Below, piece by piece: positions 43,463 to 43,525 of a DNA stretch of 57,280 nt (position 1 is its first letter; each line of letters begins with the position of its first letter). The DNA comes from Ignavibacteriota bacterium (GTDB taxonomy: Bacteria > Bacteroidota > Ignavibacteria > UBA10030 > UBA6906): NCBI GenBank assembly GCA_003157485.1, contig PMJQ01000042.1, forward strand, positions 17,610-74,889. The letters run 5' to 3'. The position numbers and the translations under genes were made by a program. The notes below the pieces were generated by a model. The model made no database searches, had not been told where the DNA came from, and saw only the letters and a list, made by a program, of their open reading frames with translations.

Positions 43463-43492
43463 TTAGACCGGAAAGAGCGTGAATTTCTTACA
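43463..43492 (-). promoter_or_regulatory. Putative ECF promoter P1 for the sigma gene (autoregulation)
   Basis: TTAGAC 43463-43468, 15-nt spacer, TTTCTTACA 43484-43492 (minus strand TGTAAGAAA-N15-GTCTAA). Confidence 0.82.
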
Positions 43493-43495
43493 TGA

Positions 43496-43525
43496 TGTAA
43501 GAAACCGGGCCCGTGACGAGTCTAA
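43496..43525 (+). promoter_or_regulatory. Putative ECF promoter P2 for the divergent small-protein operon
   Basis: TGTAAGAAA 43496-43504, 15-nt spacer, GTCTAA 43520-43525. Confidence 0.82.

What the first reader, a model, noticed from the sequence alone, without database searches (positions are those of the whole stretch)
43463..43525. Back-to-back ECF promoters with an identical TGTAAGAAA-N15-GTCTAA motif between the sigma gene and a divergent operon
Seen directly: minus strand TGTAAGAAATTCACGCTCTTTCCGGTCTAACAATG and plus strand TGTAAGAAACCGGGCCCGTGACGAGTCTAACAGTG. The two copies match in both boxes, have the same 15-nt spacer and both end about 20-25 nt from a start codon. The two -35 boxes are 3 bp apart and form the perfect palindrome TTTCTTACATGATGTAAGAAA. 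Established: GTCTAA-type -10 boxes are known for RpoE-like ECF sigmas, and ECF genes are often autoregulated. Inference: RNA polymerase should not occupy both promoters at once, so the site may act as a mutually exclusive divergent switch.
Basis: partly seen in the sequence, partly recalled or inferred. Interest (0 to 1): 0.8.

Follow-up and report, generated by a model that had tools for sequence, protein, structure and literature searches.

The report
Paired self-activating stress-sigma promoters, back-to-back
A bacterial stress-response gene is flanked by two identical start signals placed back to back, so that the same protein very probably turns on both its own gene and a neighbouring pair of unknown membrane-protein genes; this layout is kept across a whole group of uncultured bacteria, but nothing yet shows that it acts as an either/or switch.

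Summary
A third exact copy (25147-25176, minus strand) precedes a putative lipoprotein gene. These are the only three copies in the 4.1 Mb genome.

The pair lies between an ECF sigma/ZAS-type anti-sigma operon and two small membrane-protein genes (A, B) without Pfam family. All 21 orthologous sigma genes found by protein similarity carry the same pair (gap 1-3 bp, once 33). A GTDB-wide DNA scan gave 18 loci, all Ignavibacteria-type MAGs, all at this module. The boxes change together on both arms (TGAAAG, TGTAAG, SCGAAG), alongside sigma4 recognition-helix changes; spacers show no dyad symmetry. So these are two promoters read by the neighbouring sigma, not an operator.

Other ECF families of the class have analogous pairs (TGAAAC, TGTAAC) with 0-60 bp gaps; the 1-3 bp gap is special to this module.

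A mutually exclusive switch is not shown: both promoters need the same sigma, so co-induction with some interference is likelier. A 10.5-bp gap periodicity in TGAAAC pairs failed its pre-stated test in TGTAAC pairs.

The parts
43463..43492 (-). ECF promoter reading the sigma gene: -35 TGTAAGAAA, N15, -10 GTCTAA
   Evidence: exact sequence; same pair at every orthologue examined
43496..43525 (+). ECF promoter reading the divergent operon: -35 TGTAAGAAA, N15, -10 GTCTAA
   Evidence: exact sequence; same pair at every orthologue examined
43493..43495 (.). 3-bp gap between the two -35 boxes (1, 2 or 3 bp in orthologues, once 33)
42894..43439 (-). ECF sigma factor, 181 aa, sigma2 + sigma4 only
   Evidence: Pfam Sigma70_r2 9.3e-16, Sigma70_r4_2 3.1e-14; NCBIfam sigma70-ECF 2.4e-27; matches solved ECF chains, e.g. 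SigE 9m9d 9.9e-19
42490..42897 (-). probable anti-sigma factor, 135 aa, ATGA overlap with the sigma gene; N-terminal Cys plus HX3CX2C (ZAS-type) and C-terminal hydrophobic segments
   Evidence: Cys/HX3CX2C kept in 23 distinct aligned homologues; weak NCBIfam 'anti-sigma factor family' hit, E 0.006 over residues 1-44, below cutoff; no Pfam hit
43550..43666 (+). gene A of the divergent operon, here only 38 aa (one TM helix + EYRRREASH); 109-126 aa in most relatives
   Evidence: alignment of A across module loci; no Pfam hit
43685..44146 (+). gene B of the divergent operon, membrane protein with a RQxRRH-type motif after TM1
   Evidence: conserved second gene of the divergent operon; no Pfam hit above cutoff
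25147..25176 (-). third, single copy of the same promoter in front of a putative lipoprotein gene
   Evidence: exact match; the same promoter precedes the orthologous gene in two other species of the genus
24704..25105 (-). putative lipoprotein gene (LLLSGC signal), third inferred target of the sigma
   Evidence: translation and orthologues in L048 and L049; no Pfam hit

Best explanation
The element is a pair of divergent, back-to-back promoters recognised by the ECF sigma factor encoded next to it. When the membrane-bound zinc-finger anti-sigma releases the sigma, RNA polymerase with this sigma starts in both directions. Leftward it makes more sigma and anti-sigma (positive autoregulation, homeostatic because the anti-sigma is co-made). 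Rightward it makes membrane proteins A and B. A third site 18 kb away makes a lipoprotein. The palindrome is the by-product of putting two copies of one asymmetric -35 box 3 bp apart; it is not an operator. The close spacing ties both outputs to the same sigma pool and probably causes some competition between polymerases, not an either/or switch. Shown by sequence: the pair, its conservation, the box/sigma4 correlation and the module. Inferred: promoter activity, sigma dependence, anti-sigma function, any interference, and the envelope-related role.
For: All 21 orthologous sigma genes scoring above 210 bits in a protein-profile search of 397 genomes have both promoters with N15 spacing; 20 have GTCTAA on both arms and one has GTCCAA on one arm. 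Starting from DNA alone, the pattern gave 18 loci in 85,488 species, all beside an ECF sigma gene, with the divergent membrane-protein genes. Over 24 loci the -10 and the AAGA core of the -35 are essentially invariant, while the spacers are as unlike within a locus (26.8% identity) as between loci (26.7%). The -35 arms change together: TGTAAG/TGTAAG in the genus, TGAAAG/TGAAAG in most, GCGAAG/CCGAAG in one, TGAAAT/TGAAAT in an outlier, each with a different sigma4 recognition helix (VGLLLHRGRE, VATALHRGRE, VARILYEARE, ICTKLYRARR). The third site is kept before an orthologous lipoprotein gene in three species. ATGA overlap and ZAS-type motif.
Against: No transcription data exist; start sites, sigma dependence and anti-sigma binding are inferred. 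The box/sigma4 correlation rests on few independent changes (about three). The sigma start codon is not firmly fixed outside the genus (10 to 115 nt from the -10 in other lineages). One orthologue (L067) keeps both promoters 33 bp apart, so tight spacing is not indispensable.
Confidence: 0.87

Rival explanations
1. Mutually exclusive switch: only one holoenzyme can sit on the pair at a time, so sigma/anti-sigma and A/B transcription alternate and the site sets a fixed ratio or a bistable choice.
For: -35 boxes are only 1-3 bp apart in all but one of 24 loci although the sigmas are down to about 31% identical, so the short distance seems selected in this family. An ECF holoenzyme at one divergent promoter occludes neighbouring elements in the HrpL/hrpJ region (PMC5263251). 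Antagonism is known at E. coli bidirectional promoters when one direction is strongly activated (PMC12825309).
Against: Both promoters use the same sigma, so no input favours one side. Predicted start sites are about 75 bp apart, not 10-23. Basal competition was negligible at five tested E. coli bidirectional promoters. L067 keeps both promoters 33 bp apart, and related families tolerate 0-60 bp gaps.
Confidence: 0.15
2. The palindrome is the operator of a dimeric DNA-binding regulator and the -10-like boxes are incidental or housekeeping.
For: The two arms form an inverted repeat typical of dimer operators.
Against: The centre varies from 1 to 3 bp and once 33 bp, which a rigid dimer would not accept. 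GTCTAA at exactly 15 nt is nearly invariant on both sides. No symmetry beyond the boxes. Single arms occur alone with their -10 before lipoprotein genes. Box changes go with sigma4 changes. No regulator gene belongs to the module.
Confidence: 0.04
3. Only one of the two promoters is used; the other is a decaying copy left by duplication.
For: Slight asymmetry in a few loci (e.g. TGAAAGATT on one arm of L068, GTCCAA in L081).
Against: Both arms are equally conserved over the order and into other families of the class, with unrelated spacers, and each faces a conserved gene.
Confidence: 0.04

Closest known systems
EcfG (sigma)-nepR operon with divergent phyR, alphaproteobacterial general stress response (PMC8103513)
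   Same: ECF sigma operon and a divergent unit, both driven by promoters of the same ECF sigma
   Different: No PhyR/NepR; divergent genes are small membrane proteins without Pfam family; -35 boxes only 1-3 bp apart; anti-sigma is ZAS-type
RpoE7-EcfR7 of Sinorhizobium meliloti (group ECF16, PMC6180224)
   Same: ECF sigma/anti-sigma pair that seems to activate its own promoter and whose strongest targets are divergently transcribed conserved hypothetical genes
   Different: Different ECF group and targets; promoter spacing of that pair was not examined here
hrpL/hrpJ divergent region of Pseudomonas syringae (PMC5263251)
   Same: ECF holoenzyme on a divergent promoter next to the sigma gene; precedent for interference by occlusion
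   Different: hrpL itself is sigma-54 dependent, so only one of the two promoters is ECF-type and the feedback is negative
Bidirectional promoters of E. coli (PMC12825309)
   Same: Symmetric DNA driving divergent transcripts
   Different: There start sites are 10-23 bp apart and polymerases clash directly; here about 75 bp with two complete promoters
ECF families with divergent DUF6249 genes in the same class (this work)
   Same: Same back-to-back layout, same 18-nt distance from the -35 hexamer to GTC, divergent gene with one N-terminal TM helix then a basic/His-rich motif
   Different: -35 is TGAAAC or TGTAAC, gaps 0-60 bp, divergent protein is DUF6249 where tested (A is not detectably DUF6249)

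Membership tests
ECF (group IV) sigma factor | sigma2 and sigma4 domains only, linker under about 50 residues | tested here: met
   Pfam r2 at 19-82 and r4_2 at 116-168, protein 181 aa
ECF (group IV) sigma factor | directs RNA polymerase to promoters of this motif | not testable with these tools
   only indirect: box/sigma4 correlation
ZAS-type anti-sigma partner | co-transcribed next gene with upstream Cys/His and HX3CX2C | tested here: met
   ATGA overlap and motif in 23 distinct homologues; profile hit weak (NCBIfam E 0.006, below cutoff)
ZAS-type anti-sigma partner | binds and inhibits the sigma | not testable with these tools
   no binding data
Positively autoregulated ECF operon | own-motif promoter upstream of the sigma gene, conserved | tested here: met
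   activity itself untested
E. coli-type bidirectional promoter | start sites about 10-23 bp apart, shared or overlapping -10 region | tested here: not met
   two complete 30-bp promoters lie back to back, predicted starts about 75 bp apart (definition)
Alphaproteobacterial EcfG/PhyR module | divergent phyR response regulator and NepR | tested here: not met
   divergent genes are small membrane proteins without Pfam match
Palindromic operator of a dimeric regulator | fixed half-site spacing, symmetry independent of promoter boxes | tested here: not met
   gap 1/2/3/33 bp; no symmetry outside boxes
DUF6249 (PF19762) for divergent gene A | profile match | tested here: not met
   no Pfam hit for A to this family; profile comparison with DUF6249-type proteins 15.8% probability over 31 columns

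The most novel reading that the evidence does not exclude
The 1-3 bp back-to-back spacing is itself functional: two identical ECF holoenzymes interact or exclude one another, so that one sigma divides its output between sigma/anti-sigma and the A/B membrane proteins in a built-in ratio that buffers the feedback loop. In sister ECF families a preferred rotation of the two polymerases around the DNA (gap steps of about 10.5 bp) would serve the same coupling.
Probability: 0.2. Interest if true: 0.75.

Novelty: new variant of a known kind. Interest (0 to 1): 0.5.

Why it matters
It defines an undescribed four-gene ECF module (sigma, ZAS-type anti-sigma, membrane proteins A and B) in uncultured Ignavibacteria-type bacteria, with a very small predicted regulon. 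It also suggests that back-to-back autoregulated promoter pairs are a general habit of ECF loci in this class. Natural changes of the -35 box on both arms, matched by sigma4 helix changes, and two paralogous sigmas in one genome whose boxes differ by one base, give a ready test set for ECF promoter specificity. The tight spacing makes a clean test of whether divergent ECF polymerases interfere.

Tried and rejected
1) Operator of a dimeric regulator: rejected by the variable centre, absence of symmetry outside the boxes, single-arm copies and sigma4 correlation. 2) Helical phasing: in 40 TGAAAC pairs the gaps cluster near 10, 19-22, 30-33, 41-42 and 52-54 bp (R 0.63 at 10.5 bp; p about 0.005 after collapsing sigmas at 60% identity to 22 clusters; p 0.03 with 8 clusters at 50%, p 0.09 with 3 at 45%). 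This was noticed in the data before it was tested. The prediction then written down for TGTAAC pairs was not met at 5% (24 pairs, R 0.34, p 0.07), so it is left as a lead. 3) Gene A as a DUF6249 member: not detectable. 4) Mutual exclusion from structure: no coordinates of an ECF open complex could be handled here, so the clash was not modelled. 5) Literature searches for back-to-back ECF promoters, helical phasing of divergent promoters, and ECF/divergent genes in Ignavibacteria found no description; the library lacks most subscription journals, and the ECF classification papers themselves were not checked group by group.

Full report
What is there. At 43463-43525 two copies of TGTAAGAAA-N15-GTCTAA stand back to back with 3 bp between the -35 boxes. 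The left one reads an ECF sigma gene (42894-43439, minus strand) and the anti-sigma-like gene that overlaps its stop codon by ATGA (42490-42897). The right one reads two small membrane-protein genes, A (43550-43666) and B (43685-44146). The motif with up to three mismatches is expected 0.30 times in a shuffled window; three exact copies are present, and these are the only three in the 4.1 Mb genome. The third, at 25147-25176, is single and lies before a putative lipoprotein gene.

Conservation. A search with the window sigma alone (no promoter knowledge) in 100 relatives found orthologues and a paralogue; every one that has the A/B genes and complete upstream sequence carries the same pair. 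A profile search of 397 genomes of the class separated 21 family members above 210 bits from the rest at 171 bits and below (some members below that line are contig-cut). All 21 have both promoters, 20 with GTCTAA on both arms and one with GTCCAA on one arm. Scanning 85,488 species for the DNA pattern gave 18 loci, all MAGs named Ignavibacteriae, Ignavibacteria/-les, Bacteroidetes, Chlorobiaceae or Kryptoniota, and all beside the sigma gene with divergent membrane-protein genes on the other side. The spacer length was fixed in that pattern, so the unforced test is.

Two promoters, one reader. Across 24 loci the -10 and -35 cores are nearly invariant, while the 14 spacer positions compared are no more alike within a locus than between loci (26.8% and 26.7%). 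The -35 boxes differ between lineages but agree within a locus: TGTAAG on both arms in the window's genus, TGAAAG on both in most others, GCGAAG/CCGAAG in G004, TGAAAT on both in the outlier G242. The recognition helix of sigma4 differs in step: VGLL(L/I)HRGRE, V(A/S)T-LHRGR-, VARILYEARE, ICTKLYRARR. This is a correlation over about three independent changes, not a demonstration. In the same genome a paralogous sigma (C85) has its own back-to-back pair with TGAAAG, one base away from TGTAAG, so the two systems may be insulated by that base and the helix (inference).

Module and regulon. The anti-sigma-like protein keeps an N-terminal Cys and HX3CX2C in all 23 distinct aligned sequences, the ZAS signature as I know it, and has a weak NCBIfam anti-sigma hit. 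A and B have no Pfam or NCBIfam family; homologues of A are unnamed or loosely named proteins without Pfam domains, the named sources being Ignavibacteria and Bacteroidetes MAGs. In the window's organism A is cut to 38 aa, against 119-121 aa in its genus. TGWAAGAAA-N15-GTCTAA occurs 2-5 times in genomes with the module and almost never elsewhere in 100 relatives. The single site before the lipoprotein gene is kept in three species of the genus. The regulon by this motif is therefore tiny: the module itself plus one lipoprotein.

Wider setting. In 71 further ECF loci of the class (a few of this family), 23 have divergent pairs of similar geometry, mostly with another -35, against 0.15 in randomised sequence. 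Pattern searches of 397 genomes gave 38 TGAAAC pairs, 37 of them next to an ECF gene (three more came from the survey, 40 in all), and 25 TGTAAC pairs, 24 of them next to an ECF gene. The gene on the other side is typically a small membrane protein, DUF6249 in the three tested. Gaps run from 0 to 60 bp. In the TGAAAC set they favour steps of about 10.5 bp; the prediction fixed beforehand for the TGTAAC set was not confirmed (p 0.07). Only the window's family uses 1-3 bp almost always.

Mechanism. The most likely reading is simple: released sigma drives both directions, giving positive autoregulation with co-made anti-sigma and co-induction of A and B. ECF autoregulation and divergent ECF targets are known (EcfG/phyR, PMC8103513; RpoE7, PMC6180224). 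An either/or switch is not supported: both sides need the same sigma, the predicted start sites are about 75 bp apart (assuming starts 6-7 nt past GTCTAA), and E. coli work finds competition only when one side is strongly activated, at promoters 10-23 bp apart (PMC12825309). Some interference is plausible by analogy with HrpL (PMC5263251) and would explain why the gap is so short in this family.

Novelty. Individual parts are of known kinds. New, as far as the searched library shows, are the module, its A and B families, the class-wide habit of paired promoters, and the strict 1-3 bp arrangement.

Noticed in passing
window 25147-25176 (-) and 24704-25105 (-): Third exact copy of the promoter before a putative lipoprotein gene; promoter and gene conserved in two other species of the genus (L048, L049).
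   Followed up: yes
window 43550-43666 (+): Gene A is truncated to 38 aa (one TM helix) in this organism while orthologues in the genus are 119-121 aa; the promoter in front of it is intact.
   Followed up: partly
L022 / L004 / L006 (own genome, contig C85): Paralogous sigma with its own module and back-to-back pair using TGAAAGAA(A/T); one base separates the two -35 specificities.
   Followed up: partly
L005 1501-1530 (own genome, contig C108): Single TGAAAGAAA-N15-GTCTAA site before a hypothetical protein gene, a candidate target of the paralogous sigma.
   Followed up: no
L154-L191 and L192-L216: Other ECF genes of the class have back-to-back TGAAAC or TGTAAC pairs facing DUF6249-type membrane protein genes; in the TGAAAC set gaps favour steps of about 10.5 bp, not confirmed in the TGTAAC set.
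   Followed up: partly
L067 (G039): The one module where the two promoters are 33 bp apart, about three helical turns more than the usual 2 bp.
   Followed up: no
window 44549-46711 (-): Large secreted subtilisin-like protease with a C-terminal sorting-type tail (NYPNPFNPSTVIQY...), near the divergent operon; read by eye only.
   Followed up: no
window 41285-42442 (+): Uroporphyrinogen decarboxylase-family (URO-D) gene converging on the anti-sigma gene (Pfam 3.9e-20).
   Followed up: no
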